A stretch of DNA of 64,000 bases from Pseudovirgaria hyperparasitica (lineage: Eukaryota; Ascomycota; Dothideomycetes; Acrospermales; Acrospermaceae), in NCBI RefSeq assembly GCF_010093815.1, contig NW_022985553.1, positions 1,336,133-1,400,132 of the forward strand. Direction: 5' to 3'. The stretch's first letter is position 1. Every line of letters begins with the position of its first letter. A program made the translations under genes and the position numbers. Positions 26,303-49,620 of this stretch are shown in pieces. The notes beneath the pieces were generated by a model, which saw nothing but the letters and a program-made list of their open reading frames with translations, was not told the DNA's origin and did no database searches.

Positions 26303-26833
26303 TCAATCCCAATACCCCACTCTCATAACATCTCTCGACGTACTACTCATCTCTTTTCCCCCCTCCTCCCGTTTCTCACCATCCCCCCCAACCCCAAAAC
26401 TAACACCCACCCGCCCAATCAAAAACCCAACCTTCTCCCTCCCCGTATCCAGAAACACCTCCTCATCCCTCCTCATCTCCGCCTGCACCTCCTCCCGCAT
26501 GAACACGTCCATAAACCGCCTGAACGCACCCTCGTCCCGCCATTGCATCACCGTGTATGCGTCTGGATCGCTGGGATCACCTGTGCCGCGGAGGATTATG
26601 GGGGGGTATGCTTGTTCTGGGGATCCTGGCGGTGGGGATCCTGGCGGTGGGGAGGATTGGTTTGATGGGGAGGAGGGTTCACGGCGCGCGACGTAGTGGC
26701 GGGTGTGCGTGAGGGGGAATGTATCGCCCACTAGGCGTTGGAGGAGCGGGATGTGGACTGTGTCGTAGTGGGTTTGGAAGAAGGTGGGGGTTGTGCCGGG
26801 TTTGCGCCAGATTAGGGCCATGGCGGTGTACAT
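26303..26833 (-). CDS. EthD domain protein (copy 1)
   Basis: A single exon of 176 residues. ALIWRKPGTTPTFFQTHYDT at the start is the typical EthD opening (monomeric ferredoxin-like fold), followed by LVGDTFPLTHTRHYV and, after a Pro/Ser-rich insertion with a duplicated GSPPP unit (the underlying DNA GGATCCTGGCGGTGG is a perfect 15-bp direct repeat near 26620-26650), by DAYTVMQWRDEGAFRRFM. EthD proteins are small dimeric alpha-beta barrels; several in fungal polyketide clusters act as dehydratases or cyclases. It is paralogous to the EthD gene at 37029-37442 (shared VGDTFP.[ST]HTR.YV) and could mark the left edge of the metabolic cluster. Its specific reaction is unknown. Confidence 0.83.
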   Translation of the reverse strand: MYTAMALIWRKPGTTPTFFQTHYDTVHIPLLQRLVGDTFPLTHTRHYVARREPSSPSNQSSPPPGSPPPGSPEQAYPPIILRGTGDPSDPDAYTVMQWRDEGAFRRFMDVFMREEVQAEMRRDEEVFLDTGREKVGFLIGRVGVSFGVGGDGEKREEGGKEMSSTSRDVMRVGYWD

Positions 26834-27797
26834 TTTGTGATTTTTTTTTCTTTTTTTTTGGAGGGTTTCAGGTTAAGGTGGGAGGTGGTGGGGTGGTGAG
26901 ATTTGTGTTCAAGGTATAAGTAGTAAATTAAGGGTATGGCAGACGGTTGGAGGGGTGGATTGAGGGTTTATAGTGTCTGTATTTGAGGGTGAGGAGGATT
27001 GAGTGTGTGGTTTGGAGATGTGGGGTTGACTGTTGGGATACGGTGTATATGTAGTGTGTATGGGACGGGGCTAGCTGATGTGAGTTTATCTGCGTCACGT
27101 TACGGAAGGTGGGGATCCTTGCTCTTCTGGCCTTGTTGTGGGACTGCTAGTCTGGGAAGTGGATGGGAGTGGTAGTGAGCTGGCTATCATTTGCAAAACT
27201 ATGGATATAGGCTTCCGAAAGTCATTCTGCTCGGTCGTCTAAGTCATATAAGCTATTTCCTGCTCTGTTCTTGCTTAGTTTCGGGTGCGTCTAGTCATGT
27301 GTAATTCGTGCTCTAGTCTCTCGCGTTTCTGCTTGTATCTGTTAACCTTCCTTTTTATCGAGGCCGCTGTTCTATACATAGGTAATATGAACACTATCGT
27401 TTGTCGCTCGGAATTCCTCAGGTCAATGATCGTCGACCAGAGTCATACATACGTCTGGACCCAGATCTTGGTATAGAGAGTACCTTTTGACTCAGATGAC
27501 TGACAGCCTGTGAACAAGAGCCCTCTGCATAGGTCGTGAAACACAATGCATCTGAAATATACGCATTGTCCGGTCCATGGACTGGAGCAATACAGCTCTC
27601 CGCTGCCTGTTAGTCTTGATCATAGAAACATGGTAAATCTCCTTGCCCTGGAATACATTGCATTAGTGGACCTGAATTGTCAATAATGAGGTTAAATCCT
27701 GCTACGGAGACTTGCCCATATATTTCATTCAGGGACTGACGGTGATCTGTTAGGCTTCGTTAGATTTTATGTGTATATTCTATCAATGCCGCATCCA
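26834..27797. other. Intergenic, EthD promoter side
   Basis: About 960 bases of mixed composition with GT-rich stretches upstream of the EthD gene. A frame at 27285-27476 has no supportable features. Confidence 0.45.
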
Positions 27798-29633
27798 TCA
27801 AGCTCCAACGTCTAAACTCCGACAGAGTCTACCATCATTTGCCTCTGTCCATACCTCACTGCCAACAGCTGTCCGAGCATAAAATAGGCCAGTGGGATCA
27901 TACTTCTGCTTTACTTGAAGCAACTGCCCATAGTTTTCGCCGTAGAAGACGCTCTGCCACTCTGGCTCGAAAGGATCTCCCTCGTTGCCGTAAGCATACT
28001 TACTGTCAGGCATAAGAAGATCTATCTCAGGTATAATATCATTCGTCATCAGTGCGAGGTTTTGAGTATTAAGGACTCTGTTTGTTCGGTCGTGGAAGCT
28101 TTTCTTGCTGTTAGTAATTGCAACGATTTGTTGTTCATCTCGAGTCGACTTACGTTCCAACGACCAGACTCACGTACGATTCTCTCCACGCTTGATTCAC
28201 GGCATTTGGTGATTTTGAGGGCTTTGATACGTTGAACGACACGCCTGAGAAGACTATCCCGTATCTCTGAAGTGATTGCATAGTTTCCGCGATGCCGCTC
28301 GGATTATCCCTCAAGACCCTGCGAGGTATCAGTCGACTTCCAATGTCGAAAGATGAGGTCTCGGTGAGTGGATTCATGGCCTCATACATGTCCAAGAATG
28401 TAGGGAATTCTCGAGACAGGTATGCTGAAAATGATGAGCATCTGCTATACAAGACCATGGCACAGGCCACTTACTATAGTTGATTCCAACACCACTCAAG
28501 TCTTGCAGAAGCGTACTATGCAAAGCATCCATCCCGGCTTTGCCCATCCCATGCCCAACTGCAGGGGAAACGATAAAGGTCGAATTCGTGCTTAGCCAGT
28601 TGCACGAAATGCCAGCATCGAGAAGTGTCGGAAGGTGCTCAAGATAGATTTCCACCCCCTTGTAGAATGTTGCCTCATCGACGCCTACCATGCTCCAGGT
28701 CAGATTTGAGGCCGATGTTATGTCGTCCGGATGCACCTGGAGCGTCAATGACCAGACCGCGCCGTACGATGCAGCCCCTCCCCCTGACAGTGCCCAATAA
28801 AGATCTGCATTCTCTGCCGGCGAAGCAACGATGAAGTCACCAGATGCAGTGACAACCTCCCATTCCAGAGCCTGGTCGGCGCCTAGCCCAAATTTGGACG
28901 CAAGTAGTCCATGGCCGGTCCCTTGGACATAACCTCCAGCAAGACCAACGCTAGGACATGTCCCTCCGACAGTCACTAGCCCTTCGTCGTGCGTAACACG
29001 AAACGCGTCCATGAGCTGGACACCTGCGCCGACTTTAAGTGCTTTCCCCGTGTAGTAATCAGACTCGTAGTCGAGAATCTCGGTATACTTGAGATGGTGC
29101 GTCCAGAGACCCAATGCACCGGCACCCGTCGACTTTCCAAGCCAATCATGACCCGTGTTTCGAATCACAAGCCGGACATTATGTCTGTTTGCAAACCGAA
29201 TTGCCGCTTTATAGTCGAACATTTCACGAGCATCAATCGCATACTGGATGTACGTTCCAAGGATACATGACTGTTCTCGCGGCGTAAATGGATCGCAGCT
29301 TTGATTGGCAAAGGTCGGTGCCATGATCGACGAACTTGAGTTGATGTGCGTCTCTGGGAGTGTCCAGGCTTCCTGGATGGCCTGGCAGGCATCTTCATCG
29401 TAGGGACCAAACTCGCTGTCGTGGCAGGGGCTGGCCAGGGGTACTGTGGATATGAGACGACCGTTTACTGTGGTGTTGAGTTCGTGCCATTTATCTGATG
29501 TTGGCCAGCACGCATCACCGGGGAAACATCGACAGGTGTTCGTGGGTGCACTGTATGTGCCAGGCACTGAAGATGCTAAGTAAATGAATAACACAAAGTG
29601 TAGAGCCTCGGATATGAGCCCTAGAAAGTACAT
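27798..29633 (-). CDS. Secreted BBE-like FAD-linked oxidase (copy 1)
   Basis: Three exons, 29633-28475, 28424-28154 and 28107-27798, give 579 residues. A hydrophobic N-terminus (VLFIYLASSV) is a probable signal peptide. The FAD-binding type-4 (PCMH) domain contains RLVIRNTGHDWLGKSTG, with the His that is covalently linked to FAD in this family, and VGGTCPSVGLAGGYVQGTGHG, with the Cys used as the second covalent link in bicovalent members. The C-terminal berberine-bridge block is YGENYGQLLQVKQKYDPTGLF. Several N-glycosylation sequons are present. Such enzymes oxidise alcohols or form C-C or C-O bonds in secondary metabolism. It lies in the same orientation as the P450 and the second BBE-like gene. 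Confidence 0.9.
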
Positions 29634-30601
29634 TATTCTTGCTGGATATACGATAATATCGAGATCGAGGATCGCATTAAATGCACGGGATAGCCAGCAT
29701 ATTCGACAAGCATCCCATCTTGGTCATATTAACTTCAGTACTATTTCATCAGCATTCTGTTATTCTGTAAATATTGAAAAGTTACCGGACACGAGCATTC
29801 CGACTATCCTCTTGGCAAGGGACTTACATGGTAAGGGGCGCATGGGATTAGCCGTACCCTGCTGTGACAAGGATGTCGTTCTTGGCGAACTCACATTCCT
29901 TCGATCTGCCTGAGACATGAATATTTCGCTAATAGCATTGTCCTACATTATCATCCTCTGCAAGGCTATGAACGAAGATTCAGAGATGAATAAGCGAAGC
30001 TCGGAACAGAGATCTTTCGAACACTGCCTCCCCTGCAATCAGCAGGTTTGCCGGAGATAAATGTAACCCTTTCATGCAGTGCTGTGCCAAACGGTGGTGC
30101 TGCACCGAGTTTCCAAGGTCTTCATGCAATATGCTTGCCTGTCACTGACTTGAACGGTCGGAATAATGCAGGCTAGCATTACCCGTGAAAGGTGGGCCTG
30201 TCCGTAGTCATGGGCAGCCGTACGTGTCATGGGCATTGAGCCATAGCCAATCGCATAGATGCTATCCAAGCGGAGCACAAAAGAAAGCGCTTGAGGGAAC
30301 GGGCTGTTCCGGTCAGCCACAGATTAACAGAGCCGTTTCTGGGGCGTAAGATGGCCAGATTGCGTCTATGCATGTATGTCGAAGATCCATATCCCCCCTG
30401 AGACTCAATTCGCCATTTACAGATGCCAAGTGCTTAGACGGCTAGCAAGGTAAATCAGCCGGGCAATAATTGGGGCAAAGTATACAGTACAGTAATTAAC
30501 ACAGGGCAGGCAGCCAATGGAAAGAAGTCAGAAATATCAGTAACACTGTCGGAGGATCAGGTATGACTCTAGGGTATTATAGCTATAGAATACGCTATCG
30601 T
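29634..30601. other. Intergenic between BBE-like 1 and P450
   Basis: About 970 bases, the upstream region of the BBE-like gene and the 3' flank of the P450 gene. No gene recognised. Confidence 0.5.
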
Positions 30602-32548
30602 TCATATCCTTCTTTCGAATGTACAGAGGACCTGGCCCGGTTGGGCGGTAACTTGATCCTTCATATCACGCCACATGGTTTCCTCGTCGTATCCTGGAGA
30701 GAAAGAGACGTTGAAATTGCGGAGTACATTAGCAGTAACGAGGCGAAGTTCAGCGTATGCCAGAACCTTACCGACACACTGACGGCTGCCTATATGAACA
30801 TTAAGAAGACTGATCAGCAACGCAATTCGTAGAGCAAGAAACGAAGACCTACCAAAAGAAAACGGCCCAAACGCGCGTTTATCTTTCACCAAATCTGGGC
30901 GTGAATACCACCGCTCAGGGATAAACTCGTCTGGATGGACGAACGCATTTTCCACTAGATTTGCTGTGAGCAAAGTGCAATTAGCAATGTCAAGATAACT
31001 TACTTCTCTTGATGACATATTTTGGCGCTGTGACTTTGGTTCCCGCAGGTATGAAGACATTATCTACTGTAAGCCCCTGCGGGCCTGTGATGCGCCCTCC
31101 GCCAGTCATCGCAGGAGGTACGAGACGTAAGATCTCCTGAATAACCCCGTTCAGATGTGGAAGTCCAGCTAGCACATTAGCATCTCCTATATCTACTGTT
31201 TCGATTTCCTGACGGATCTTTTCGGCATGCTCAGGATATTTCGCCAGATACCACCAAGTTGCAATCAGCGAGGCACGTGTTGTGTCACTATACCCATTGC
31301 AGTCAGCCCTGGACTAGGTCTTTAGACAGGATATCGAATGATCATACCTTCCAGCTACGATGGCCGATACTGCTGTGCCTCCCAAGAGTCTTTGCCGGCT
31401 TTGAAGGTCTCGCACCTCGCTCAAGTTGTGGTATTCATCGATGAACCAGGATGCCATGTCAGCTTTCTCGTCCGTTTGTAGCTGTTTCTCAATTATTACC
31501 ATTCTCGGAGAATACGCAGCAACACTTGAACTCACTTCCATGCGTCTCGCCATGCGCTCCTCACAGTATGAAACCATACGCATCCACGACTTGACTTTAC
31601 CCAGAAAGGGTACAAATGAGAATGCCAATTGAGCGATCCAGACGGCGTCACTGATAGGACCAAGCAGTGCCAGGGCTCTCTTTTGGTGAATGATTGCGTC
31701 ATGCGTAACCTTTTCCTGCATCATTCCAAAGCTTTTGCCAAAGACGACGTCGCCCATTGCATCAAAGGAGAACCAAGACATGACATCATTAATGTTTACT
31801 GGTGCACTGCTCAACTCCTGAATGCATTGGACCAAGTTGAGAGCCTGTTGGTAGATGCGAGGACGGAACTCATCCATCGCTATTGGACGGTCAGCCAATG
31901 TTGCCTGCAAAACGAGATCATGACGAACCTTTCGTGGAGAGAGACTGCGTCCAGACCCGACGTCTGTCCCGATGATCTTGGGCATTTCTGGTAAATATCG
32001 CTGACGTTCTTGGCTGGAGAACATCATACCAAACATCTTTCGAATTGGTATTATGAGCTCCATCCAGAAGCTCTATCGCCGACGGGTGGAAAATGGTGAT
32101 TTCGTTAGGGCCTGAACGTGTCAGCAGCGCCCTATGTGCCGAGATATGTAAGCTTACCCGTTCTGACAACAGTTCCATACTTCTCGTACAGTCTCTGCAT
32201 TACCAGATAATTTGTTGAATTCCTGGCGTGGTATATATGCCAAAATTTGGAAACAGCGGCAAGTCTAGGTCCTGGGAAATTGACAAGTTTGTGGAACATT
32301 GTGCGATAGACAGCAATGCTAGCAAACAGCGATATCAGATACCAGGCTGATAAAGTGATTGTGTAAGTACATGCCGCCAGGATATCGTCGAGATATCGCT
32401 GTAATGTACCAAGGACAAGCGCAGCGATCGTAGCATGAGCGCCGATGATAGATCGAGAATGTAAGTGCCATTCTCCATGTATGAAGAAACCCAAGTGTGA
32501 GGTGACGCCAGCAACAATGCCACAAAGGGGGATAGCAAAGTTCATCAT
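30602..32548 (-). CDS. Cytochrome P450 monooxygenase
   Basis: Six exons, 32548-32158, 32111-31929, 31879-31348, 31287-31004, 30963-30853 and 30789-30602, give 562 residues. The start is the ATG pair at 32548; the frame is open further upstream but without an ATG. The N-terminus has three hydrophobic stretches before the proline hinge VNFPGPRLAAVSKFW, more membrane anchoring than a classical one-helix P450. The I-helix motif AGSDTTRAS spans intron 3, EILRLVPPAM contains the ExxR helix, DEFIPERW is the PERF-like element, and the heme loop FSFGSRQCVGK (FxxGxRxCxG) is restored across the last intron. It should be an ER-anchored monooxygenase needing a P450 reductase. Neighbours suggest it tailors the product of the cluster; the substrate is unknown. 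Confidence 0.92.
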
Positions 32549-32868: not shown

Positions 32869-34569
32869 CTAGACCCTGCAAAGCCGACCGTCTGACTGCT
32901 CTGACCATCGCTCACTGCCGACCGCCGTTCTAGCCCAAAACAGGTCATCTTGGTCATAGCGCCTCTTGATAGCCAAGAGTCGCTTGTAGTTCTCGCCGAA
33001 GAAAAGCGTCTGGAAATCTGGCTGCTGAAAGTCTGCTTCGTTTAGATATGCACCTCCATTCGGGGTGATCTCAGCTATTCGCGGGAGCAAATCGTTAGTA
33101 ATCAGATCCTGGCCAGCTATTGTCTTGGAATAGTCTGTGTAATTGATAGGTGTGCCGACCACCATTCCAAACAAAGACTTGCGCCAGTAAGGATTTGCAG
33201 AAACATTATAAGGGCCGCTTTGATTCACATTGAACGTAACGCCTGTACTGATTGTCTGTTCGCTGATGTAACGAATGACTTCAACAAGGGCTGGCGTGTC
33301 TTCTTCAACAAGAGAGCGTGGTATCAAGCGACCTGCAACGTTATAGTCCGACACATTCCAAGTTGACGTGAGAGAGTCATATCCAGGGAGGAACGAAGAG
33401 TATTCTGTGGAAGAATACGAGAACTCCTGCTTGAGGTCGCTCATCTTGTCAAGTGTTGGTTTAATCAAGAGATCGAGTTCTTCTTTATGGATTCCAGGGC
33501 CCATTGCCGGCGACATGAGCAGACCGAAAGGTGCTGCGACCCACGCAACAAAAGCTCCGGCATCTGCAAGTGCGGGCAGGTTCTGTAAGAAAGTCCCAAG
33601 AACTTCGTATATTGCATCTGCATTCGTGCCATTGTTCATGAGAGAAAATGTGGCCATAGTGATATGAGTATTCGTAAATGCCTTAACAGTCATAGACACG
33701 ACTACTGCGTAAGTGCCTCCTCCGCCTCCACTCAGTGCCCAAAGCAGGTCGGCATTAGAAGTTGGTGTGGCCTTGACTAGGCGGCCATTAGCAGTGACCG
33801 CTTCAATTTCAAGAATCTGATCCGCTGCAAGACCGTGTCTGGAAGACAGAGGCCCATGACCTCCACCCTGGGAGTACCCCCCCGCGAGTGCAACTGTGGG
33901 ACAGTTACCACCGACGACCATGAGGCCATTCTGCTCAGCGAATGCATACGCTTCTTGTGACTCAATACCAGCACCGACGCGGATTGCAGGACCATCATAG
34001 CTAGTTCCATGATATTCAGATATCAATTCAAGAGACTTCAAGTGGCGTGTCCATATCGCGATCGCGTACGCTCCAGTGGATCTCCCGAGGTAGTCGTGCC
34101 CGGTATTCCGGACTACTAAACGAATGTTGTTCTTTCGGGCAAACTTGATGGTCGCCTGAACATGTTCCACTGAGGTCGCATTCACAGAGTATACGACATG
34201 ACCACCAAGCGTACAAGCAGTATCCGAGCCTACAAAAGGATTGCAGCTGTTGTTACTGAAGGGATAAGCCATCGGCGATGAGGAAGATTCGAGATGGGTC
34301 TCTGGAAAGAACCATACGTTACGCAAGGCATCACACTGAGCTTGATCGAAGTCAGGCTGGTGACAAACGGAGGCAATCGGAACCGTGGATATCAGGCGGC
34401 CGTTTACGGTCTTGTTGAAGTCGTCGAACGCTTTCGAGTCCGGCCATGAGGTATCTCCAGGGATCGTGCGGCATTGTGATGTACGGCTGGGCCAATTACC
34501 ATGTTTCCTTGCGATGGCAGCAACAAGGACAATGAACGATAGAAAGAACAAGGTGCGTCGGCGAACCAT
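32869..34569 (-). CDS. Secreted BBE-like FAD-linked oxidase (copy 2)
   Basis: One uninterrupted exon of 566 residues. A strong signal-anchor or signal peptide (LFFLSFIVLVAAIA) opens the protein. The FAD domain shows RLVVRNTGHDYLGRSTG (His link) and VGGNCPTVALAGGYSQGGGHG (Cys link); the BBE end is FGENYKRLLAIKRRYDQDDLF. It shares extended similarity with the oxidase at 27798-29633 (both have NGRLISTVP, PWPDS/CWPTS, PETH..SSS.MA), but lacks the two introns of that gene, so the copies diverged some time ago or this one lost introns. Expected to be secreted or in a secretory compartment and probably bicovalently flavinylated. Two such oxidases in one cluster suggest two oxidative steps. Confidence 0.92.
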   Translation of the reverse strand: MVRRRTLFFLSFIVLVAAIARKHGNWPSRTSQCRTIPGDTSWPDSKAFDDFNKTVNGRLISTVPIASVCHQPDFDQAQCDALRNVWFFPETHLESSSSPMAYPFSNNSCNPFVGSDTACTLGGHVVYSVNATSVEHVQATIKFARKNNIRLVVRNTGHDYLGRSTGAYAIAIWTRHLKSLELISEYHGTSYDGPAIRVGAGIESQEAYAFAEQNGLMVVGGNCPTVALAGGYSQGGGHGPLSSRHGLAADQILEIEAVTANGRLVKATPTSNADLLWALSGGGGGTYAVVVSMTVKAFTNTHITMATFSLMNNGTNADAIYEVLGTFLQNLPALADAGAFVAWVAAPFGLLMSPAMGPGIHKEELDLLIKPTLDKMSDLKQEFSYSSTEYSSFLPGYDSLTSTWNVSDYNVAGRLIPRSLVEEDTPALVEVIRYISEQTISTGVTFNVNQSGPYNVSANPYWRKSLFGMVVGTPINYTDYSKTIAGQDLITNDLLPRIAEITPNGGAYLNEADFQQPDFQTLFFGENYKRLLAIKRRYDQDDLFWARTAVGSERWSEQSDGRLCRV

Positions 34570-35602: not shown

Positions 35603-36812
35603 ATGGTCAGCCCCCGTGGAGAGGCTTTGGCTGCTTGGTTGTCTGTTTTCACTGTACTCACCGTAGGTGTCCTGATCCTGCGCTTTTACGCAGTCAGGAT
35701 ACAACAACGAGCTCTTCGTTCCGATGACTATCTCGTCGCTGGCGCTACCATCGCAATGCTTGTTCTTGAAGGATGTACCTTTTGGGGTAAGCAGGCGCTT
35801 TTGGTACTCCGCTGAGTTGAGATTGACTGTTCTATGTTAGCGATTCACAATGGGCTCGGGGCTCGAGCAGCCACGCTGGATTGGCCACAGCAAGCTGTAC
35901 AGATCAAAGTAGGTCAATAGCACAGTCACCCAGTGGACTCATACTAACTGTTGATGACAGTTGATGGTTTCCGCATTCTGGACATGGACAATTGCCACGA
36001 CAGGATGCAAACTCGCTGTGCTTCGTCTTTACTTGGCCATATTCCACACCAAGACTTTCAGATACATTAACTTTGTGCTCATGGGACTGGTTGCATGCTA
36101 CCCGTTTGTATTCATTCCCGTATTCATGACACAATGTACTCCTGTATCTGCCGCTTGGGACCCCGTATTGTCCCTCACGCACTGCCGACCGAGGGAGCAG
36201 CACGAACTGGCGTCAGTCGCTGTCAACGTCGCATTCGACCTCTTGATTGTTCTTCTCCCTCTTCCCTGGATTTGGAGTTTGCAGATGGCGACAAGGAGGA
36301 AGGTTACCGTCACAGCTATGTTCAGTCTCGGGTTGTCGTAAGTCTCAGTGACTGAAGCAATATACCTTGCACTATTATCTGTAGCTAACATCTGTCATAG
36401 CATTGTTGGAGTAATGATCTGGCGACTTGTTACCACCGCGCTTCCAAACCCGAACCCGGATTTCACATATGACGTATACATTCTTGCTCTGCAGAGCCAT
36501 TTGGAACTGTGGCTAGGTCTTCTTGCTGCTTCTCTACCTACTCTAGCCCCATTGCTATCTCGAATGGTCCCTGAGAACGTCAAAAGTTATTTCAAAGGAT
36601 CCTCAGTACGGAGTCCGAAGCGCAACAATATGATCAGGTCGTTTGGCCAAGGTAGATTCCCGCGGACAAAGGCTAAGAGCGACCTTGACTCCATCGACGG
36701 ACTCGATATCCCTCTACATAGCATAGAGCGAAGACAGTATATACAGGTTTCGTATGGTAAGAACGACTCCAAAGCGTCCGAACAGGGTAAGCCTGTCGGT
36801 GTCGAGCTTTGA
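35603..36812 (+). CDS. Fungal rhodopsin-like integral membrane protein
   Basis: Four exons, 35603-35786, 35841-35908, 35961-36337 and 36401-36812, give 346 residues. Seven hydrophobic helices are visible, beginning AWLSVFTVLTVGVLILRFYAVR and followed by SDDYLVAGA, the DD motif of the Fung_rhodopsin (PF20684, formerly PTH11-like) family; W-rich KLAVLRLYLAIF, a Cys-rich extracellular loop and an ASL.TLAPLL segment follow. A cytoplasmic tail of about 80 residues is basic and Ser-rich. Family members often sit in secondary-metabolite clusters, where roles in sensing or transport are suggested but mostly untested. No microbial-rhodopsin retinal lysine is expected or seen. Confidence 0.85.
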
Positions 36813-37028: not shown

Positions 37029-37442
37029 TCATCCGCGAACTGTCTTTTCATTCTCCACTCCAAACACTCTTAGCTCACTCCCTATCAAGAATTTTTCCTG
37101 CTCTGGTGCAAGCTTGTCCACATTGTCGCCCAGGCGGTTTCGAAAGAGAGTGAAATGTTCCTCATCACGGAACACGAGCACTACGACACAGTCAAAGTCA
37201 CACTCGGAAGGAGCGCCCATGAATGTCATTGGATTCCGGACGCTTGAAGTTTGATTGTCTTGTTGCTGATTCTGGCCAGTTGGGACGTCTTGCTTCACAT
37301 AGTAGCGTGTATGTGAGACTGGAAAAGTGTCGCCGACGATGCTTTTGAAGAAGGGCAGAAATTTCTCATCCCAATGGGTTTGAAATTCTTCGAACGATAT
37401 TGAGGGGTTTCGATTCTCAAGTGCGAGTACAGTGAATGTCAT
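37029..37442 (-). CDS. EthD domain protein (copy 2)
   Basis: A single exon of 137 residues, the typical EthD length. It opens MTFTVLALENRNPSISFEEF, has SIVGDTFPVSHTRYYV at about residue 35 and DCVVVLVFRDEEHFTLF near residue 90. It aligns along its whole length with the EthD protein at 26303-26833 but lacks the long Pro-rich insertion. Cluster-encoded EthD proteins in fungi (for example in anthraquinone clusters) catalyse dehydration or decarboxylation; that the present one does so is inference. Confidence 0.83.
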   Translation of the reverse strand: MTFTVLALENRNPSISFEEFQTHWDEKFLPFFKSIVGDTFPVSHTRYYVKQDVPTGQNQQQDNQTSSVRNPMTFMGAPSECDFDCVVVLVFRDEEHFTLFRNRLGDNVDKLAPEQEKFLIGSELRVFGVENEKTVRG

Positions 37443-37616
37443 GATTGTCTCTTTAACCGCGTTGAACAGATTGTCGTGATTTGGGCAGGTATGATTCCCT
37501 GATAGTAGTAATTTTGATGAGCTCTATGAGAGTTCGAACGAAAGATCAACAGAGAATAGCAGAGACAGAGCGAAGTGAACAGTCTAGGGTTACACAGGAC
37601 TTTCACCAGAGTTTAC

Positions 37617-38000
37617 TGACACTGCTTGAAGAATAAATACACCTGGGAGAAGTCCGAAAATTGAGCGAGCCGCAACAGTGGTATGCCGATTTTAGTCCGT
37701 CGCATGTTAACCCTACAGAAATCGACACTCCTCAAAGAACAAATACACTTAGCGAAGTCCGAAAAATGAGCGAGGCGCAACAGTGGTATACCGATTTTAG
37801 TCCATTGCATGTTGACCCTACAGATATTGACATTCCTCAAAGAATAAATACACATTAGCGAAGTCCGAAAAATGAGCGAGGTGCAACAGTGGTATGCCGA
37901 TTTTAGTCCGTTGCATATTAACCCTACAGAACTATCCACTAGATCAATCCGGATGCCGATTCTAGTCCGCTGCATGTTAACCCTGCAGAACTATCCCAGG
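37617..38000. repeat. About 105-bp tandem repeat array
   Basis: Three long units begin with AGTCCGAAAAA/T at 37651, 37756 and 37862 (periods 105 and 106 bases), preceded by a partial unit from 37617 and followed by a truncated unit at about 37953-38000. Units share GAGCGAGGCGCAACAGTGG and ATGCCGATTTTAGTCCG. Units differ by several substitutions. Both strands stay open for more than 100 codons, but the frame breaks outside the array. Confidence 0.9.
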
Positions 38001-40165: not shown

Positions 40166-41104
40166 ATGAAGCATCCACAAAGTGAGATTATCTACTGGTC
40201 TGCCGCCACCTATAAGATGGTACACAAACTACGAGACCTTGTCCAGAACTTTTGGCTCTTTACGAAAGACGATGCATGGACCTTCGTAGCCCCCAATACC
40301 ATCTTCGGCCTCAGCAGTGCTCTCGCTGGCCGTGTATTTTGCAATCACAGTCAATCTTGGCAGGATACCCTCTTGCGCGCCCCACTTGTCGTTCTCTTCA
40401 ACTGGGCCACACTACTCATCTTCGATCTCGCAAATCAGCGTCTCCCCGAGTCTGTACGAGAGGATGCACTCAACAAGCCGTGGCGACCGGTGCCTAGTGG
40501 TCGAATGTCAAGTGAGGCTGTCCGAATGACTATGCTGGCTTGCATACCCTTGGTTCTAATCCTGGGGAACATGCTCGGAGCAGGCCCACAGTGTAATGGG
40601 ATCATTATTCTGACATGGCTTTATAACGATTTGGGTGGCGGTGACCAGAACTGGGCTCTTCGAAATCTTATTATCGCTGTCGCATTTGGGTTGTTCAATG
40701 TGGGATCGTTGCGGGTGGCGGTAGGGGCAGGGAGTGAAGAGTTAGAATTAAGTTACCATGGGAAAATGTGGACTGTCATGATCAGTGCGGTGATCTTCAC
40801 TACCATGCATGTACAGGACTTGAAAGATCAGCTAGGGGATAAAAGTCGAGGCCGACACACAGCGCCGCTGATATTGGGAGATCACTATGCAAGGTATACC
40901 ATCGCAATTCCAGTGGCTGTTTGGTCCGTGATCATGTCAGTTTATTGGAACATGCGGCAGTGGAGTCTTGTACTCATTCTGTTAGGATCATATATCTCCT
41001 GGCGTTGTTTAATGTTGAGAAACAAGGAGGAAGATCGAAAGACCTGGCAATTCTGGGCTGCGTGGACCGCTGTCCTCTATATACTCCCAACTATTTTCAG
41101 TTAA
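40166..41104 (+). CDS. UbiA-superfamily prenyltransferase or terpene cyclase
   Basis: An intronless gene of 312 residues with seven to nine membrane helices. The first Asp-rich region reads FDLANQRLPESVREDALNKPWRPVPSG (about residues 84-110, quoted in part): the N-Q...ED..NKP.RP pattern replaces the NDxxDxxxD of classical UbiA enzymes. The second motif DLKDQLGDKSRGRHTAPL is a standard UbiA DxxxD region. Fungal proteins with this altered first motif include the UbiA-type membrane sesquiterpene cyclase of the fumagillin pathway and relatives in meroterpenoid clusters (established knowledge). It is the only plausible scaffold enzyme in this cluster: either it cyclises farnesyl diphosphate or prenylates an acceptor made elsewhere. 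It acts in the ER membrane and needs Mg2+ and a prenyl diphosphate. Confidence 0.86.
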   Translation: MKHPQSEIIYWSAATYKMVHKLRDLVQNFWLFTKDDAWTFVAPNTIFGLSSALAGRVFCNHSQSWQDTLLRAPLVVLFNWATLLIFDLANQRLPESVREDALNKPWRPVPSGRMSSEAVRMTMLACIPLVLILGNMLGAGPQCNGIIILTWLYNDLGGGDQNWALRNLIIAVAFGLFNVGSLRVAVGAGSEELELSYHGKMWTVMISAVIFTTMHVQDLKDQLGDKSRGRHTAPLILGDHYARYTIAIPVAVWSVIMSVYWNMRQWSLVLILLGSYISWRCLMLRNKEEDRKTWQFWAAWTAVLYILPTIFS

Positions 41105-42798
41105 CTATCAGACCTAATATGAGCCTGGGCTGTAGGAGGTTGTGGGTAGAGATCTATGACTATAGGTATCAGTCGATAGTACAAAGGATACAAAGCCGAT
41201 TAGCAGTGTGATCCAGGGAAATATCGTGATGCTGTGCTTGCATGTGCTCAATTCTAGTTGTCACGATCATCAAGATGTGATAGGTCGTACTCCAAGTTAA
41301 ACTACAGTCGGCTAGAGATCGAGATCTTCTACAACGATTTAAATGATATGAAGATATTGAAATTAAGATTTATTGCCATGTATATTACCAATGAGGACCT
41401 AAGGTATACAATAGTACGAGCAATGAAGGTCATATATATTTATCTATAACAATCGTAGATAGATGCAGGGAAGTTATTTCCTACATGGACGCCGGTTGCG
41501 TAACATTGAATACAGAAGAAGAAAGAATTCTAATTAATGAACAGAAGCTCTTGAAGCGTCAAAGCTACTAACATACTACCCTTGAGGTAGAAGGTAGTTA
41601 TCCAAGTAAGAGTGAGAGTACCATGGTCAAGACTTAGGTAGAACGTGCTATTTATTATCATGTGAACCCAGTGAAATGGCCCGGTATGTAATATGTATGA
41701 ATCATAGCTAGGACTGATAGTAATATTATCTACGATATCGATATTGTCTAACTAAGTATTATAAGGCTAATACTATCGACAATTCTCCAATATAATACTA
41801 GACTTTGTTACTTGCATCTAAATAGAGAATAAGAGAAGAGATATCTCTTAAAGAGATCTACTATCTTCTCTACGATGGAGTTAGAGAAGATTTATATTAA
41901 CTTTTCACTTTCTTTAAGATAGATATATTTCTATAGAGGACTTCTCTATAGGCGATTCCTTTAATCTCAATCTAATCTGTGGGAATCATATTATAGATAC
42001 TCGAGAAAGGGGAATCTTCTAAGCTAATAGCTTCCTAGAGTATAAGATAAGATATCTATAAAGCTATAAAGCTATATTAACTACAGAAGTAGTAGTAGGT
42101 AGTTTCTCTAATACTATCATAAAGCCTATGCTAGAGACACGTTACATCTTTAACGGACTATAAGGTCTATTGATAACTAATTAGGCTTCTACATATAAAT
42201 AGATTATTATACTTATTAGGCTCTTTCTCGTAGTATACCTTATATAGGGATAGACTTATGATTATACTATGACAGAAGGCATCTAGGTTGAGTATATACT
42301 ACGCCTGTCTTATTTATTAAATGGACGCTGGTACCGAAAAGTGGATTCCATACACTGCTATGTTTATTTTCACGATTATAAGAGGTACCTTGCTTGTGCA
42401 CCGCATTATCAACAAAGAATGCTTGAAAATTTGTTCAAGCACCCTTGAAAGTAACTAGGTACCCAATAATGCTCGTTGTTTTGTTGGGCATTATGTTATG
42501 CTTTCATATACAGCTAAGCGTGCTTCAGCTTTCATAGATCCCAGAATGCAGACTAAGACATCCTGATGCCCAATAGGCCTATCCAAGGGATGACTTCATG
42601 AATACCGAGCCAAATACGTACGAATACCGAATTGCTTTGCACCACTTGATTCTCTCTGAGAGTGATCTCACCTTGCTTATAGCGCTTAAAGAGCCTGAGA
42701 CAAATAATTAAGAGCATAAAAATCCAGTATCTATGTAGACTCTCGATGTGGCGCCATTCATATGTCGAGCAAGGATTCTGTGTTTTGACCAAGTACCA
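41105..42798. other. AT-rich gene-poor block
   Basis: About 1.7 kb, strongly AT- and TpA-rich from 41240 to 42300, with stops in every frame. It looks like an old repeat after repeat-induced point mutation; no family can be named. A small perfect hairpin TGCTTGAA-N6-TTCAAGCA lies at about 42418-42439. Confidence 0.55.
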
Positions 42799-43859
42799 TC
42801 AGTCTTCCTTGCTAATGATAATTGAACGGGTCTCGACACTTCGTCGCTTGCAAGCCGTAGGGCTTGCTCGTGGGTTGGGGAAAGGTACGTGAGGACAAAC
42901 TGTTGGGGTTAGCGTTAGAGTCTATATGTGAGATAGATAGAAATACACCGTGCTTGATCACCAGGCGCGGAGTCATAGCTGACGAATAGTACGGGCTCCT
43001 CGGGCGTCATATGCTCAAGCCAATACCTACAGAGTGGTTGTCAGTCTATCGTCGGAGGCTAGTAGTGATTTCTGGCTTGTACCATTGTTGGGCAGGGTTA
43101 TATCGAAGATAATAATTTTCGCCGACACGAGTTGGTATCACCCTGTCACACGCAATGAGATCGTTCTTATCAACGGTACGGTAGTCGCAGTAAGCTAGCG
43201 GCATGTCCTCCAAGATAGGGAGTAATGAACGCCACGTGCTAAGTAGAGTGTTATTAGCCAGGCATCGTTCCTTGAGAAATTTCCATACTTCATGATCCTA
43301 AACCGATATCCACGCTTTGCATATTTCGCCATGAGCTCCCGAGGCAGGTGATGTCCGATGATTCTTGGTCCAGCTGCGCGTGATACATCAACATGAGCAC
43401 CCTTTGCCGGCCGATCCGGGACTGTATCATCCCTAAGGTTGATAACACGACCAAGGTCAGCTCCATTATCTCGAAGCTGTAAACATCTCAGCAGAATGGA
43501 AGCAGTTCTGATTGCTCACATACCTTTACGTCAAATGTGTAGACACATTCCACGTCAAGGAGCTTTTTGAGATACGTTTGGGTCTCAGATCTGTACTCTG
43601 CAACCTCTTCGTTTGTCTTTATCTCGGAAACGGATGTCTGATGGTTCAAGATTGTGAAGCCTACTTCGTTCAAGTCAAAAGGCTCTTTTTGTTCTCTGAC
43701 ATCACGTATCAGTACGGAGTCACGTTTTTCGAATTTCAAATTGTTAGTAGTGACAGAACTGTCGTATTCTGCTGCAGACACAAGAACCTGGTATGGTTTC
43801 TCATTTTTGTAAAGGGGCAAATCTGCAATGAATTCGATCGACGTTACAATGTCTGGCAT
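42799..43859 (-). CDS. AsaB/CTB9/CmcJ-like hydroxylase/desaturase
   Basis: Five exons, 43859-43524, 43476-43289, 43238-43083, 43026-42947 and 42899-42799, give 286 residues; only the first is obvious as an open frame and the rest was recovered by splicing. Family landmarks are SIEFIADLPLYKNEKPY at the start, DLNEVGFTILNHQTS near residue 65, a GAHVDVSRAAGPRI block, RFRIMNTWRSL across intron 2, ALIACD-like DLIACDRV, and YLRYNPAQQWYWLEHMTPEE across intron 3, ending FCPHVPFPNPRA. This is the 2-oxoglutarate-dioxygenase-like group of AsaB (aspergillic acid), CTB9 (cercosporin) and CmcJ. The H-x-D of AHVD is a candidate iron ligand pair. It probably oxidises or desaturates a cluster intermediate. 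The start is the first ATG; exon lengths sum to an exact codon number. Confidence 0.87.
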
Positions 43860-43974
43860 TGCTAACGTGCCTCAAATTTCGATGTGGTCAGCTAGATGAT
43901 AGCAGGAGAACTACTTAGACCCAAAAGAAAATCAGGTCATAGCAGATGGGGCTCTGCATACCACTAAGCTTGTC

Positions 43975-44512: not shown

Positions 44513-44609
44513 ACCAGCGTCTCAATTTTGTAGCTCCATAGCAATATCACGTAGGTCTTTTGTGCGTGCTTTCTTTTCTTGACGCTTGCTGAACTCCCTA
44601 GTCTCCACC

Positions 44610-44834
44610 ATGCAAGCTCAAATCGAATTTCTCAAGACAATCACGACTGGCCCTGAGCCGGACGAGGTCATCGATACTATGGCAGCCCCTGTAGAGCTTT
44701 ACCCGAGCGAGAGCGAGAAGGAACAGCCGTGGAAGGCATGGATGAAGTTCCAGGAAGCAACTCCTTCTGGAGATGAGCTGGTATTCATGATCAACGACCT
44801 CGATTGTGGTGCAGGTGGACTGGGTGGATACTGA
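44610..44834 (+). CDS. Small acidic protein, 74 residues
   Basis: An intronless frame starts at an ATG in a CACCATGCA context preceded by a pyrimidine-rich leader (TTTCTTTTCTTGACG), as in real fungal genes. It encodes an acidic peptide with EVIDTMAAPVELYPSESEKE and WKAWMKFQEATPSGDELVFM and ends GAGGLGGY. No signal peptide or known domain. It could be a cluster-linked small protein, a precursor peptide or a chance ORF; transcript evidence would decide. Confidence 0.35.
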   Translation: MQAQIEFLKTITTGPEPDEVIDTMAAPVELYPSESEKEQPWKAWMKFQEATPSGDELVFMINDLDCGAGGLGGY

Positions 44835-45007
44835 TTCTGGTGCGGAAGAATCGTCATGAGTTGAGCATACTGTAGCTGCTGTTTGACAATTCGACCACCA
44901 TGCCATGGATGTAAAGCCTCTGTCTGGCCTACTTCGTAGGGAAATCCACTGACGGTCTATATTATTTCTATAATAACATCTATCCATGTTTGAGTGCGTG
45001 ATTCGAC

Positions 45008-46491
45008 CTATGCTACTTGCGAAACTTGGATCGCTTGAAGCACAAATTGACCAAGCGCAAATAATAGTCCAACTCCACCGAATATAGTAACGATCCAGAA
45101 TGTGTACCTACAGAATCAGTCTCGACCATATTTGAGGAAGTCGATACAGAAACTCACCAGCGAAGCAAGTCTCTCCGATCCTGCCAAAGCATTTTAATTG
45201 TGCCAGGATCCTGTCGAGAGATATACTCTTGCAAAAGTAGCAGTCGGGGCCCAAGAATGGGAAAGTTAGTATGAATACTGTATGCTGTCGTTCGGCTCGA
45301 AGTATCTGCTGACTGTTTAACCAGATCGCGGAGGCATATATCAATGTTGCCGGAGACTATAGCCCGTTTCGCTACCACACGTCGGAAGTGCTCACGGGCT
45401 CTTCTGTCATCTCCAAAAACCAGGCTATACGACAGCCGAATTTCTTCCAGTAAGGCTTTAGTGGAAAATCCATCGGGCTTTGAGTATGCATCGTAGTAGC
45501 TGGAGAGCAGGCTGTCATCTGGAATCAGTTCTGCACATCTTATATAGAGTCTAAAGCTAGACAACTCACCTATCCAGCAGTGTCTTCTCGAACCTATTGA
45601 TCACACAATATGACGGTAGTTGAAACATTAGCAATCGCCGTTTCTCGATATCAAATGAGAGATGAGAGCTTATGTTAGAAACCCACTGAATCTCAATCCT
45701 TCCAATGCGCCATAGAGTGGAGGCATTGAGCAAAGAGACTTGCAGTGTATCCGATGGTCTGTACGCGGGATCCCAATTTGTTTGATTAGTGGATTGGTTT
45801 TGAATTGGGAGAAGTTGTCCAAATTGGCGTAGCATTTCGCACAGTGGTTTCTTCCCTTGCTCAAGACCTATAGCAGCTAGATTGAGCCCAACGAATTGCT
45901 GCTCGTCAAGCGACAATGTCGTTGAGACAGGCATGGTAGGTGAGGGTGAGTACAACATGCTAATCCATGACATCGATACGAAAACCAAAGTACATGCTCT
46001 GGCATACGTATCTGGACTTCTTGATACGTCCGCAAGTATCTGACGCTGCACCAGATAGCTGACAGCTGTATCAATGCTACAATACTTATTGGCCTTGGCA
46101 TGCTCTGCAAGTCTAGCCAGCATACACATCATCTTATCCAGATCAGTCAAGCTTGCGTTAGACTCTGAGTTGACAAGCAATCCCTGGAGGGTGGCAGCTG
46201 GGAGAGCCTGGATATTGTGTTCGAGGTAGTCAAGGAAGACCTGCTGGCCCGGAGTTGCAACAGCCGAGTCTCCGAAATCGGTACCAGTGACTGCAGATAG
46301 CAGAAGCTTTGCTGTAGTCTCCAATGGTTTCTTAATCGATCTTGCTGCAGTTTCAGGTTACCATTCTGCACATGTCATTCCAATTGTCCCTTGCACTCAC
46401 AATCTCGCTGCCCTTCTTGATTGGCCTTTTCTAGATCATGGATTGACTCTCTGTTATGATACCACCACAAACACCATGGCGGGACTCTCAT
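45008..46491 (-). CDS. Unknown fungal protein with C-terminal membrane helix
   Basis: Four exons, 46491-46401, 46344-45570, 45511-45158 and 45107-45008, give 439 residues. The start MRVPPWCLWWYHNRESIHDL was recovered upstream of a TTG-initiated frame by splicing GTGAGT...CTGCAG. The centre is alpha-helical (DKMMCMLARLAEHAKANKY, LSLDEQQFVGLNLAAIGLEQG). Near the end come LLLLQEYISRQDPGTIKMLW and QDRRDLLRWYTFWIVTIFGGV, then a single hydrophobic segment FGGVGLLLFALGQFVLQAIQ. I know similar proteins only as uncharacterised ascomycete proteins; the D-RRDLLRW juxtamembrane motif seems to be their signature. A C-terminal anchor facing the cytosol is inferred. Confidence 0.68.
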
Positions 46492-47568
46492 CTTTGTTGT
46501 GTAAATAAGATATGATATGTTTGTTACACAGGCGATTTCACAAGAACAAACTTTCATGTAAGCTCCGCTAACGTGTTTCTGAACTTGAGTATTGTGGTCC
46601 GTGGATCAACTCTAGTTCGATACTGGCAAGACATTACTATGAAATGATGCGCTCATTGCTGTGTACACGGCTGTAGTTGACCACCGTGAGGCGGCCTAAT
46701 GGGTCTGCCAGCCACCAATATCTGGTCCCTGAGCTGAACCCGCGGTATAGAGTCGTTGTAACTTGTGATGGTGGCTGCACGAGACTATACCTTATTGCCC
46801 TCGATCTTCTTTCCTTTCGTAATGTGATGTATGGACCGGCCAATGATGAAGCTAGTCATGATGTTGGAATGGCTTTATGTAGCAAAGATTGAATGATTTG
46901 CCAGTGCTGGATGGATGAGTTGTACGCCAATCAGTCCTTACCAGGAGCGGTTTAGGCGCTTGTGGACACCCACTTGTACACAACTACAGCTGTCACCTTG
47001 TCTTCCGGGGTTCTCGATCCCTTTGTCGCCAATTATACTTGGGCTCAGTTGCATCAGAAATATTAGCGCCGTAACCATCTTGACGGCTGACGGCTGCCTA
47101 CTTGCCAAGCATTAGCAGCCCTTGTCATAGCCTTACGGGTCTGCGACGCCAAACCTACTCACCGGTCGATATTCCGGCGTCGAATAGCGATGGGGAGTCA
47201 CCCTCCTAATTACCAGCAGCTGTTCCCACATCCAAGTTCCCTTGCCGTACCGCTGGGAAGCGAAAATGCTGTCGCTTTGGATGACCTGACCACGTTGACA
47301 AGGCAGAGTTCCTAGAGTCGTCTTAGCTTGTTCTGTCAACGTCAAACGCAGCTTCAAAGGACATGCCACATCCTGTCTACTTCTTCCTATTGACCACTAT
47401 AAGAAGCGTCTATGACCTGTGTTCATACATCCAATAGTCAAGAGATTACCACCGACGCCGTTATCTTACTTCACCGCCAATATAGGGACAAGACTGTCGT
47501 TTGGCGGGCTCATCAAGATTGCATCTTGCTTCGCCGCCATTGTCGCATTCCTGAAGTGTAACTTCAGG
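46492..47568. other. Divergent intergenic, unknown membrane protein / amidase
   Basis: About 1.1 kb with no supported gene. Short frames at 46677-46892 and 46915-47115 are unconvincing. It holds the promoters of two divergently transcribed genes. Confidence 0.45.
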
Positions 47569-49620
47569 ATGGCGCAACCCAGCTTTCGCCATGCGTGGAA
47601 ATCAGGCAGTCCGCCACCGGGCTTTGAATTCCATCGTCGTTCCATAACCAAAATCGATCCGTTGACTGCATCAGCTCATGTACTCCAAGATATGCTTACA
47701 GCTGGTGAAGTCAAAAGCGCGGATCTTGCAGAGCACTATATCTCGCGGATCGAACAGTACAACGGCTATCTCAACGCAGTATTTCAATATGCGCCAGGAG
47801 TGATGCAACGAGCCAAAGACATGGATGAGAAACGCAGTCAAGGCACTGTCCTTGGACCTCTGCATGGAATACCAATTCTACTCAAAGTATATTGTGCCCC
47901 TGTTGAAGCATTCTACGTCTGACGAATACAGGACAACATGTGTACAACGCCAGACTTGGGCATGCATACAACTGGAGGAGCAGTCGCACTGATAGGCGCA
48001 GAATGTTCGTCAAATGCGGAAGTTGTTCAAAAGGTAGAAATATACACTGAGAATGTGTCAAAAACCACTAACATTCCTAGCTTCTTGATGCCGGCGCAGT
48101 GATTTTAGGAAAGACAACATTATCAGTAAGTTTAGATGCGAAGTGATGGATGAGGCTAATGACGATACCATTAGGAGCTTAATTTCAACAGGTAAGCGCA
48201 ACGCCAAAAAAAATAATGCTTATGATTTCTAACTATCAGCCAAGGGATTCCCATCTTCCGTGTTCTTGGTCAGCAGTCGCAGGAATGGGCCAGTCGCCGT
48301 ATGTCAAAGGAGGTGTCGATCCAAATGACAATGCCGGAGGTCACAGCGTAAGTGTTTTTTTTTTGCGACGTGCGTTTCATCATCTTACTATCATACAGAA
48401 TCCAGGTGGGTCATCCTCTGGGTCTGCCATCGCTGTCGCAGCCGGACTTGCACCCATTGCCGTAGGCAGTGATACAGATGCATCGTTGACGGCACCTGGT
48501 GTAAGAGCGGCATTATATACTCTTAGACCCACGCTCAACTTGGTGCCCGTCCGTGGTGTTCTGCCTATGGCTCATTCGTTTGATACGGCCGGTCCGATGG
48601 CCAAGAATCCGAGGGATTTGGCCAATCTTCTCGATGTTCTAGTTGATCCATCTACGACGAAGGTTCCCTCAGGTGGGTACGTCTCGGTCTTGGATCAGAG
48701 CTGGACCGGTATACGCATTGGAGCTCTTGACCCCGAGATTTGGCAGTATCCAGATTGGCTGTGCAAGCCTGAGGAAGCCGCGACTCAACAGATCGTGAGA
48801 CGCTTCGACGACAAACTCTCAAATTAAGCTAATGCTACTAGATCCGCGACACAAGAAACGCGTATGCTCGGGTTCGGTCTCTTGCCGATTCTTTCCATGA
48901 AAATGTGGAGCTTCTAGAGGCTACCGAGTTTATGCTCAATGGGGATCACTCTATCTATACCATCGTTGGTACGGAAGTGTAAATCAATACCAAAGCAAGA
49001 TCACGTCTAACAACAATGCAGCTGATGACTTCGAAGAAGACATGAACGGCTTTCTTTCAGAGCTCACGAAGAAGAAATTCGATGATCTGAGAGGAATGGT
49101 CAAATGGAATGCTGAAAACGTAGAAGAAGCACTAACAAAAGGTGCGTACATATTGGTGAAGCCGTAGATAACATCGCACTCATCAATTTGACAGAATATC
49201 CTGGCCAGGACAAATTGACTGGTGCTCTAGAGACTAATCTGTCTGTGGATGCTCGAAACGAAACTGTTTCACACTACAAGCGAATCGGGGCAAGCTTTGA
49301 TGAGATTCTCAAAAAGTATGATATCAACATCATCATTGCTCCTGGGGATTGCTTCTTTTGCCAGTATGGTCCCGCAAACGGTATGCACAGAAAGGAATGG
49401 CCCTATGCATAAACAGCTGATTGGAATTCTAGGTTACCCCGTTGCAGCTCTGCCATTGACCACATTGGACTTCAACGGACGACCCATTGGTATTCAAGCT
49501 ATCGCAGCCGCTCATCAAGAGCCATTGTTGCTGAAGTTTATGAGCGCGTGGGAGGCAACGTTCCCTCGGCCCGTACCACATGGTTACGGTGATGTTTCAC
49601 CAAATGATCACAGTCTCTAA
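47569..49620 (+). CDS. Amidase-signature protein, probably frame-disrupted
   Basis: About nine or ten exons starting 47569-47886, 47932-48033, 48081-48125 and 48175-48191. The amidase-signature family is clear: GPLHGIPILLKDNM carries the catalytic Lys, PGGSSSGSAIAVAAGLAPIA the cis-Ser region, and GSDTDASLTAPGVRAALYTL the catalytic Ser loop, followed by PMAHSFDTAGPMAKNPRDLA; the end GYPVAALPLTTLDFNGRPIG is typical. Between 48241 and 48267 the frame for SELNFNSQGIPIF and that for WSAVAGMGQSPYVKGG differ and no splice site reconciles them, so this is either a recent pseudogene or a sequence error. The usual TDGS of fungal relatives is TDAS here. Function if intact: hydrolysis of an amide bond, possibly in the cluster pathway. 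Confidence 0.75.

What the first reader, a model, noticed from the sequence alone, without database searches (positions are those of the whole stretch)
26303..49620. Candidate undescribed biosynthetic cluster centred on a UbiA-type membrane enzyme
Within 23 kb lie two BBE-like FAD oxidases, a P450, an SDR, two EthD proteins, an AsaB/CTB9-like hydroxylase, a rhodopsin-like membrane protein, an unknown membrane protein, an amidase and a UbiA-superfamily protein, but no PKS, NRPS, DMATS or canonical terpene synthase. The UbiA protein has the altered first Asp motif (NQ...ED..NKP.RP) known from the fumagillin-pathway membrane sesquiterpene cyclase. Rule-based cluster finders that key on classical core enzymes could miss it. 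That it is one pathway and that the product is a terpenoid are inferences.
Basis: partly seen in the sequence, partly recalled or inferred. Interest (0 to 1): 0.78.

Follow-up and report, generated by a model that had tools for sequence, protein, structure and literature searches.

The report
Fungal cluster around membrane terpene cyclase
A fungal chromosome carries a compact group of modifying-enzyme genes around an unusual membrane-bound enzyme that, by its sequence, should fold a small isoprenoid into rings, which makes it a likely but untested gene cluster for a still unknown terpene-type natural product.

Summary
In detail: gene models and profile searches confirm every class named. The UbiA protein (40166-41104) is not COQ2/COX10-like: it groups with two of the six other UbiA proteins of this genome, apart from the other four. 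It lacks NDxxDxxxD and YxxxK and has the second motif of fungal UbiA-type sesquiterpene cyclases, with a first motif close to, but not identical with, theirs. Grouping looks non-random: both EthD matches of the 35 Mb genome lie here, with 2 of 13 BBE matches, 1 of 3 cyclase-like UbiA genes and 1 of about 9 CmcJ/NvfI loci. No PKS, NRPS or canonical terpene synthase match lies on this contig. Likely core: 26.3-43.9 kb. Best reading: the UbiA cyclase makes a sesquiterpene from FPP; a P450, SDR, CmcJ/NvfI oxygenase and two MtVAO615-type oxidases modify it; the EthD step is unknown. Clusters with such cyclases are known; this combination did not appear in my literature searches. One pathway, the product and conservation in other fungi are untested.

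The parts
26303..26833 (-). EthD1, EthD-domain protein, 176 aa, with a proline-rich insert
   Evidence: PF07110 5.3e-13; one of only 2 EthD matches found in the genome; 33% identical to EthD2 over 106 aa
27798..29633 (-). BBE1, VAO/BBE-type FAD oxidase with bicovalent-FAD residues, 576 aa, 3 exons
   Evidence: PF01565 3.7e-16, PF08031 4.1e-12; two-row profile with BBE2 finds MtVAO615 at 4.3e-155; His162 in RNTGH, Cys226 in CPSVG, Glu516
30602..32548 (-). Cytochrome P450, 527 aa, 8 exons (N-terminal start by judgement)
   Evidence: PF00067 6e-53; FSFGSRQCVG, EILR, AGSDTT
32869..34569 (-). BBE2, VAO/BBE-type FAD oxidase, 566 aa, one open frame
   Evidence: PF01565 5.4e-21, PF08031 1e-12; MtVAO615 5.2e-119, Glu511 aligned to MtVAO615 Glu519; His158 in RNTGH, Cys223 in CPTVA
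35603..36812 (+). Rhodopsin-like fungal integral membrane protein, 346 aa; membership uncertain
   Evidence: PF20684 5.5e-45
37029..37442 (-). EthD2, EthD-domain protein, 137 aa
   Evidence: PF07110 8.9e-10; second of 2 EthD matches found in the genome
38401..39427 (+). Short-chain dehydrogenase/reductase, 290 aa, 4 exons
   Evidence: PF00106 1.1e-20; TGAGSGIG, NAG, YLTAK
40166..41104 (+). UbiA-type terpene cyclase candidate, 312 aa, intronless
   Evidence: PF01040 1.1e-21; N90QRLPESVRED100, Y153, Q217DLKDQLGD225, no NDxxDxxxD, no YxxxK; apart from the four other-type paralogues
42799..43859 (-). CmcJ/NvfI-family oxygenase, 281 aa, 5 exons; last splice junction uncertain
   Evidence: NF041278 193.5 bits; NvfI variant 7emz 1.9e-12; H140xD142, H252, RRSVETR
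45008..46477 (-). Unknown protein, 415 aa, with a C-terminal hydrophobic stretch; start uncertain; doubtful member
   Evidence: models; no Pfam match
47569..49620 (+). Amidase-signature protein, 530 aa, 9 exons; doubtful member
   Evidence: PF01425 7.8e-52; LLKDN, GGSSSGSA
41110..42790 (+). AT-rich stretch with RIP-like dinucleotide ratios between the UbiA and CmcJ/NvfI genes
   Evidence: GC 0.33-0.40 in three 1 kb steps, TpA/ApT 1.03-1.26; one match, itself, in the genome

Best explanation
A small natural-product gene cluster of about 17.6 kb (26.3-43.9 kb, nine genes) whose scaffold enzyme is a UbiA-type (intramembrane, class I) terpene cyclase. Proposed working: the cyclase binds a prenyl diphosphate, most likely FPP from primary metabolism, through Mg2+ held by D100 and D218/D221/D225, ionises it, steers the cation with Y153, and releases a cyclic sesquiterpene. 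The P450, the SDR and the CmcJ/NvfI-type oxygenase then oxidise it; the two MtVAO615-type FAD oxidases dehydrogenate or isomerise the oxidised intermediate; the EthD pair acts at an unknown step, possibly decarboxylation. Shown: the genes, their motifs, the paralogue split and the grouping. Inferred: FPP as substrate, C15 product, order of steps, the EthD role, and that the nine genes are one pathway.
For: UbiA: 8 of 11 residues of motif I shared with Pb_BisA, exact QDxxDxxxD, and D100/Y153/D218/D221/D225 spaced much like residues essential in Tps1A (D100, Y155, D215, D218, D222), while 3 of the 4 other-type paralogues carry NDxxDxxxD and all 4 carry YxxxK; tree split 100/100. Grouping: both EthD matches found in the genome, 2 of 13 BBE matches, 1 of 3 cyclase-like UbiA genes, 1 of about 9 CmcJ/NvfI loci; with tandem pairs counted once, the chance of the three other families all falling within 17.6 kb of the EthD locus is about 3e-7 under uniform placement. 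No KS, condensation or PF19086 match on contig C5. NvfI, and AspoA as a relative of MtVAO615, are tailoring enzymes in print. No prenyl diphosphate synthase match on C5 (0 of 6), which fits use of housekeeping FPP.
Against: Motif I has Glu95 where Pb_BisA has Gly100, and the literal consensus printed in both papers, NXXX(G/A)XXXD, is not met; the printed Pb_BisA string does not meet it literally either. No shared promoter motif; no regulator or transporter domain in the models scanned. The two other cyclase-like UbiA genes have no BBE, EthD or CmcJ match in the 20 kb read around each. Fungal EthD proteins are described chiefly from pigment and aromatic polyketide clusters, which does not point to a terpene. 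The chance estimate assumes uniform placement, whereas such families tend to cluster. The tree program warned that long branches meet (L001 with L005 and two more).
Confidence: 0.66

Rival explanations
1. The UbiA protein is a true prenyltransferase that attaches a prenyl chain to a small aromatic acid, and the cluster makes a non-polyketide meroterpenoid, as in the mos cluster of Neoarthrinium moseri (4-hydroxybenzoate, UbiA MosC, Pyr4-type cyclase MosB). The EthD proteins would decarboxylate the aromatic ring.
For: PKS-free UbiA clusters are reported, one of them on 4-hydroxybenzoate; EthD proteins MdpH and ClaH are reported decarboxylases in xanthone and anthraquinone synthesis.
Against: The prenyltransferase signatures NDxxDxxxD and YxxxK are absent and QDxxDxxxD is present. 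No Pyr4-type cyclase was recognised, but such proteins lack a Pfam domain and were not searched for with a model of their own; the 45.0-46.5 kb protein has no domain match.
Confidence: 0.15
2. Two or more unrelated small gene groups happen to adjoin: an EthD/BBE/P450 group (26.3-37.4 kb) and a UbiA/SDR pair, with CmcJ/NvfI and amidase as neighbours.
For: The duplicated EthD and BBE genes all lie left of the SDR; no common promoter motif; an AT-rich stretch separates UbiA from CmcJ/NvfI; cyclase-like UbiA genes elsewhere in this genome do not have this company.
Against: No recognisable scaffold-making enzyme would then be left for the EthD/BBE/P450 group: no KS, condensation or PF19086 match on contig C5. 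Rare families coincide at about 3e-7, though uniform placement is a generous null.
Confidence: 0.15
3. A decaying or silent relic cluster without function.
For: AT-rich RIP-like spacer; an awkward last splice junction in the CmcJ/NvfI gene, where only a weak donor keeps the frame in my reading.
Against: All nine core genes can be read in open frames by my models, and the motifs looked for in six of them (UbiA, BBE1, BBE2, P450, SDR, CmcJ/NvfI) are there.
Confidence: 0.04

Closest known systems
Pb_bis cluster of Penicillium brasilianum (UbiA-type bisabolene synthase Pb_BisA; PMC11745945, passages and section 17 seen)
   Same: UbiA-type cyclase with motif I NQRHPGSVAED and motif II QDMYDQPGD, close to NQRLPESVRED and QDLKDQLGD here.
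   Different: Sixth residue of motif I is Glu here, Gly there. Its main text holds no BBE, berberine bridge or EthD term; its gene list was not seen.
tps1/tps2 clusters of Antrodia cinnamomea (Tps1A, Tps2A, (+)-(S,Z)-alpha-bisabolene; PMC9835599, passages and section 16 seen)
   Same: UbiA-type sesquiterpene cyclase with P450 tailoring; essential D100, Y155, D215, D218, D222 have likely counterparts D100, Y153, D218, D221, D225.
   Different: Basidiomycete; the characterised partners are a P450 and a methyltransferase.
Fumagillin cluster, Fma-TC (beta-trans-bergamotene; original paper not held, seen only through citing papers)
   Same: Intramembrane UbiA-type cyclase acting on FPP.
   Different: Fumagillin joins a polyketide chain to the terpene; no KS match lies on this contig.
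mos cluster of Neoarthrinium moseri (PMC11109268, passages and section 9 seen)
   Same: UbiA protein plus FAD enzymes without PKS.
   Different: MosC is a prenyltransferase working with a Pyr4-type cyclase; here the motifs are of the cyclase type.
MtVAO615 (PDB 6f72; PMC6017366, passages seen) and AspoA (PMC8752850, passages seen)
   Same: Same oxidase subclass as BBE1/BBE2: FAD-anchoring His and Cys and the Glu at the catalytic place.
   Different: MtVAO615 has no known substrate; AspoA lacks the Cys and works in cytochalasin synthesis.

Membership tests
Fungal UbiA-type terpene cyclase | UbiA superfamily protein | tested here: met
   PF01040 77.7 bits, cut-off 34.2
Fungal UbiA-type terpene cyclase | Altered motif I (printed consensus NXXX(G/A)XXXD; printed example Pb_BisA NQRHPGSVAED) instead of NDxxDxxxD | tested here: inconclusive
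   NQRLPESVRED: 8 of 11 identical to Pb_BisA and NDxxDxxxD absent, but Glu at the Gly place and the literal consensus not met (nor by the Pb_BisA string as printed)
Fungal UbiA-type terpene cyclase | Motif II QDxxDxxxD | tested here: met
   Q217DLKDQLGD225; also in L007, absent from L001-L004 and from L006
Fungal UbiA-type terpene cyclase | Essential Tyr (Tps1A Y155) | tested here: inconclusive
   Y153 is invariant among the three own-genome members; equivalence to Y155 is by spacing only
Fungal UbiA-type terpene cyclase | Groups with characterised cyclases in a tree | not tested
   their sequences were not on hand; only own-genome paralogues were used
Fungal UbiA-type terpene cyclase | Cyclises a prenyl diphosphate | not testable with these tools
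   needs expression and GC-MS
UbiA prenyltransferase (COQ2-type) | NDxxDxxxD and YxxxK | tested here: not met
   both absent in the window protein, both present in L002, L003, L004; L001 has YxxxK only
MtVAO615-type FAD oxidase subclass | FAD-anchoring His and Cys, Glu in place of the usual catalytic Tyr | tested here: met
   BBE1 His162/Cys226/Glu516, BBE2 His158/Cys223/Glu511; covalent binding itself not tested
CmcJ/NvfI oxygenase family | NF041278 above its cut-off and HxD...H triad | tested here: met
   193.5 bits over 80 for the spliced model; H140xD142, H252
Biosynthetic gene cluster | Co-located genes that are co-regulated and conserved together | not tested
   co-location shown; expression data and other fungal genomes not available; promoter k-mers gave nothing significant

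The most novel reading that the evidence does not exclude
A pathway type not seen in my searches: a UbiA-cyclised sesquiterpene is oxidised to an acid by the P450, then decarboxylated and dehydrogenated or rearranged by an EthD/MtVAO615-type oxidase couple that is present twice, giving a nor- or aromatised sesquiterpenoid. It would give the orphan MtVAO615 oxidase subclass a terpenoid role and EthD proteins a role outside polyketides.
Probability: 0.2. Interest if true: 0.62.

Novelty: new variant of a known kind. Interest (0 to 1): 0.45.

Why it matters
UbiA-type cyclases may be missed by cluster finders keyed to PKS, NRPS, DMATS and soluble terpene synthases; one paper reports that antiSMASH overlooks the membrane cyclase NvfL (another family) and the oxygenase NvfI. 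I did not run such a finder here. In this locus the cyclase would sit with two oxidase/EthD sets of unsettled chemistry. MtVAO615 has a solved structure but no known substrate, so a defined pathway would make the function of that subclass directly testable.

Tried and rejected
Rejected: that the UbiA gene is of the COQ2 or COX10 type. Not found: a PKS, NRPS or canonical terpene synthase match on contig C5 (counts are lower bounds). Rejected: a multi-copy repeat behind the AT-rich stretch; the only match in the genome is itself, with the tool's warning that simple repeats are skipped. No result: a shared CGG-N-CCG or other promoter motif (best 8-mer p 8e-5 among 4224 k-mers, best 7-mer 1.5e-4 among 3383). 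The 21-nt inverted match between a P450 intron and the UbiA promoter I judge within chance for a 28 kb self-search; no shuffle was run. No result: relatives of the cyclase in bacterial and archaeal genomes; 1 of 33 candidate stretches passed, a 45-residue partial match. No solved structure matched the EthD pair at E 0.1 or the P450 at the strict limit of 1e-30. Papers: of 5 papers with at least 4 of the terms EthD, UbiA, berberine bridge, gene cluster and fung, none holds EthD. That is no proof of absence: the library lacks most subscription papers, and I saw listings and passages, not whole texts; the 2013 Fma-TC paper is not held and the 2022 BibS paper was seen only as a reference in another paper. 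The DMATS search is uninformative. Gene prediction: the first prediction script failed and the second over-merged genes; the models used are. One weak 74-aa model at 44610-44834 was dropped without a domain search.
Full report
What was checked. I trained a small spliced-gene predictor on 264 kb of window and own-genome sequence and built models for 22-54 kb. Models are computed, without transcripts; the starts of the P450 and of the 45.0-46.5 kb gene and the last junction of the CmcJ/NvfI gene are uncertain, and one weak 74-aa model (44610-44834) was dropped.

Gene content. From left to right: EthD1 (-), BBE1 (-), P450 (-), BBE2 (-), rhodopsin-like (+), EthD2 (-), SDR (+), UbiA (+), CmcJ/NvfI oxygenase (-), unknown protein with a C-terminal hydrophobic stretch (-), amidase (+). 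Pfam or NCBIfam support each except the unknown one. Left neighbours are a MOSC protein and a CinA-domain protein; right neighbours a DUF7708 protein and an NB-ARC/TPR protein. Motifs looked for in seven of the eleven proteins are there, with BBE2 reading CPTVA instead of CxxV/L/IG.

The UbiA protein. The genome search gave 7 UbiA matches. Three (window, L006, L007) resemble each other at 34-40% identity and show no BLAST match at E 0.01 to the other four; a maximum-likelihood tree of the 7 separates the two groups with 100/100 support, with the program's warning that long branches meet. Of the other four, L002, L003 and L004 have NDxxDxxxD and YxxxK, and L001 has YxxxK only; the window protein has neither. 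It has QDxxDxxxD, which the Tps1A paper names as the cyclase form, and residues spaced much like D100, Y155, D215, D218 and D222 of Tps1A, each of which abolishes product when mutated to Ala (PMC9835599 section 16). Motif I reads NQRLPESVRED against NQRHPGSVAED in Pb_BisA (PMC11745945 section 17): 8 of 11 identical, but Glu instead of Gly at the sixth place. The literal consensus in both papers, NXXX(G/A)XXXD, fits neither string. L007 has Ala at the sixth place (NQRLPASVVED). Solved relatives are distant: archaeal DGGGP synthase 6m31 and two chlorophyll synthases, E about 1e-4.

The oxidases. BBE1 and BBE2 are 41% identical; for BBE2 the best other match in the genome is BBE1 (342 bits), ahead of a C24 gene (302 bits, 35%). 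Their closest solved relative is MtVAO615, a bicovalent flavoprotein whose substrate was not found and whose active site has Glu519 where most relatives have Tyr (PMC6017366 passages). Both proteins keep the His, the Cys and this Glu. AspoA, 35% identical to MtVAO615, uses a Glu (538) for a double-bond isomerisation (PMC8752850 passages). The CmcJ/NvfI protein aligns with NvfI over 230 residues.

EthD. Only 2 EthD matches were found in the genome at this sensitivity, both here. Fungal EthD proteins are described mainly from pigment, anthraquinone and xanthone clusters, and two of them (MdpH, ClaH) as decarboxylases (PMC10890192 passages; PMC4591646 passages).

Is the grouping chance? The second EthD gene would fall within 17.6 kb of the first with probability about 0.001. 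With tandem pairs counted once, a BBE (12 loci from 13 matches), a cyclase-like UbiA (3) and a CmcJ/NvfI locus (9, my grouping of 15 matches) would all fall within that distance of the EthD locus at about 3e-7. The null is uniform placement, which favours the claim, because secondary-metabolism genes cluster in general. The test says that this is a grouping of such genes, not that they are one pathway. The genome search reads six frames without introns, so counts are lower bounds.

Core enzymes. 37 KS, 40 condensation and 6 PF19086 matches in the genome, none on C5; no prenyl diphosphate synthase match on C5 (0 of 6). Within the cluster the UbiA protein is thus the only recognisable scaffold enzyme; a domainless one cannot be excluded.

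Evidence against one pathway. No promoter k-mer or CGG-N-CCG pair stands out. No regulator or transporter domain is in the models scanned. No BBE, EthD or CmcJ match of the genome lies in the 20 kb read around L006 or L007; 4 of the 14 models there were scanned with Pfam: a P450 fragment near L006, and Fungal_trans, NmrA-like and SDR genes near L007. So this company is not a fixed habit of cyclase-like UbiA genes in this genome.

Placement. UbiA-type cyclases in natural-product pathways are known (Fma-TC, Tps1A/Tps2A, EriG, Pb_BisA, BibS). In the listings and passages of my ten paper searches I saw none that pairs such a cyclase with EthD and MtVAO615-type oxidase genes and a CmcJ/NvfI oxygenase. 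I therefore call it a new variant of a known kind.

Noticed in passing
L007 / G000:C11:1010378-1011271: A second UbiA-type cyclase candidate with motif I NQRLPASVVED and motif II QDMPDIPGD, within about 6 kb of a Fungal_trans regulator, an NmrA-like reductase and an SDR: possibly a second small terpenoid cluster.
   Followed up: partly
L006 / G000:C1:2851262-2852227: A third member whose motif II reads ADMYDQEGD (Gln lost); its neighbours look like housekeeping genes by my reading, with a P450 fragment about 9 kb away.
   Followed up: partly
41110-42790: AT-rich stretch with RIP-like dinucleotide ratios, no second copy found in the genome.
   Followed up: yes
37614-37940: Three tandem copies of a unit of about 106 bp in the spacer shared by EthD2 and the SDR.
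   Followed up: no
25875-26027: Minisatellite of 9 bp units (ATTAGGTCT) just left of EthD1; the 25.0-26.5 kb steps also have RIP-like ratios, so that index is not specific.
   Followed up: no
24180-25248: A CinA-domain protein (PF02464, 6.3e-16) in a fungal genome, beside a MOSC-domain gene.
   Followed up: no
50726-54083: A DUF7708 protein beside an NB-ARC/TPR (STAND-type) gene.
   Followed up: no
12001-13000: Another low-GC stretch (0.36), not examined.
   Followed up: no
G000:C24:265254-296329: A BBE gene related to BBE2, a PF19086 terpene synthase match and a KS match within about 31 kb: perhaps another cluster.
   Followed up: no
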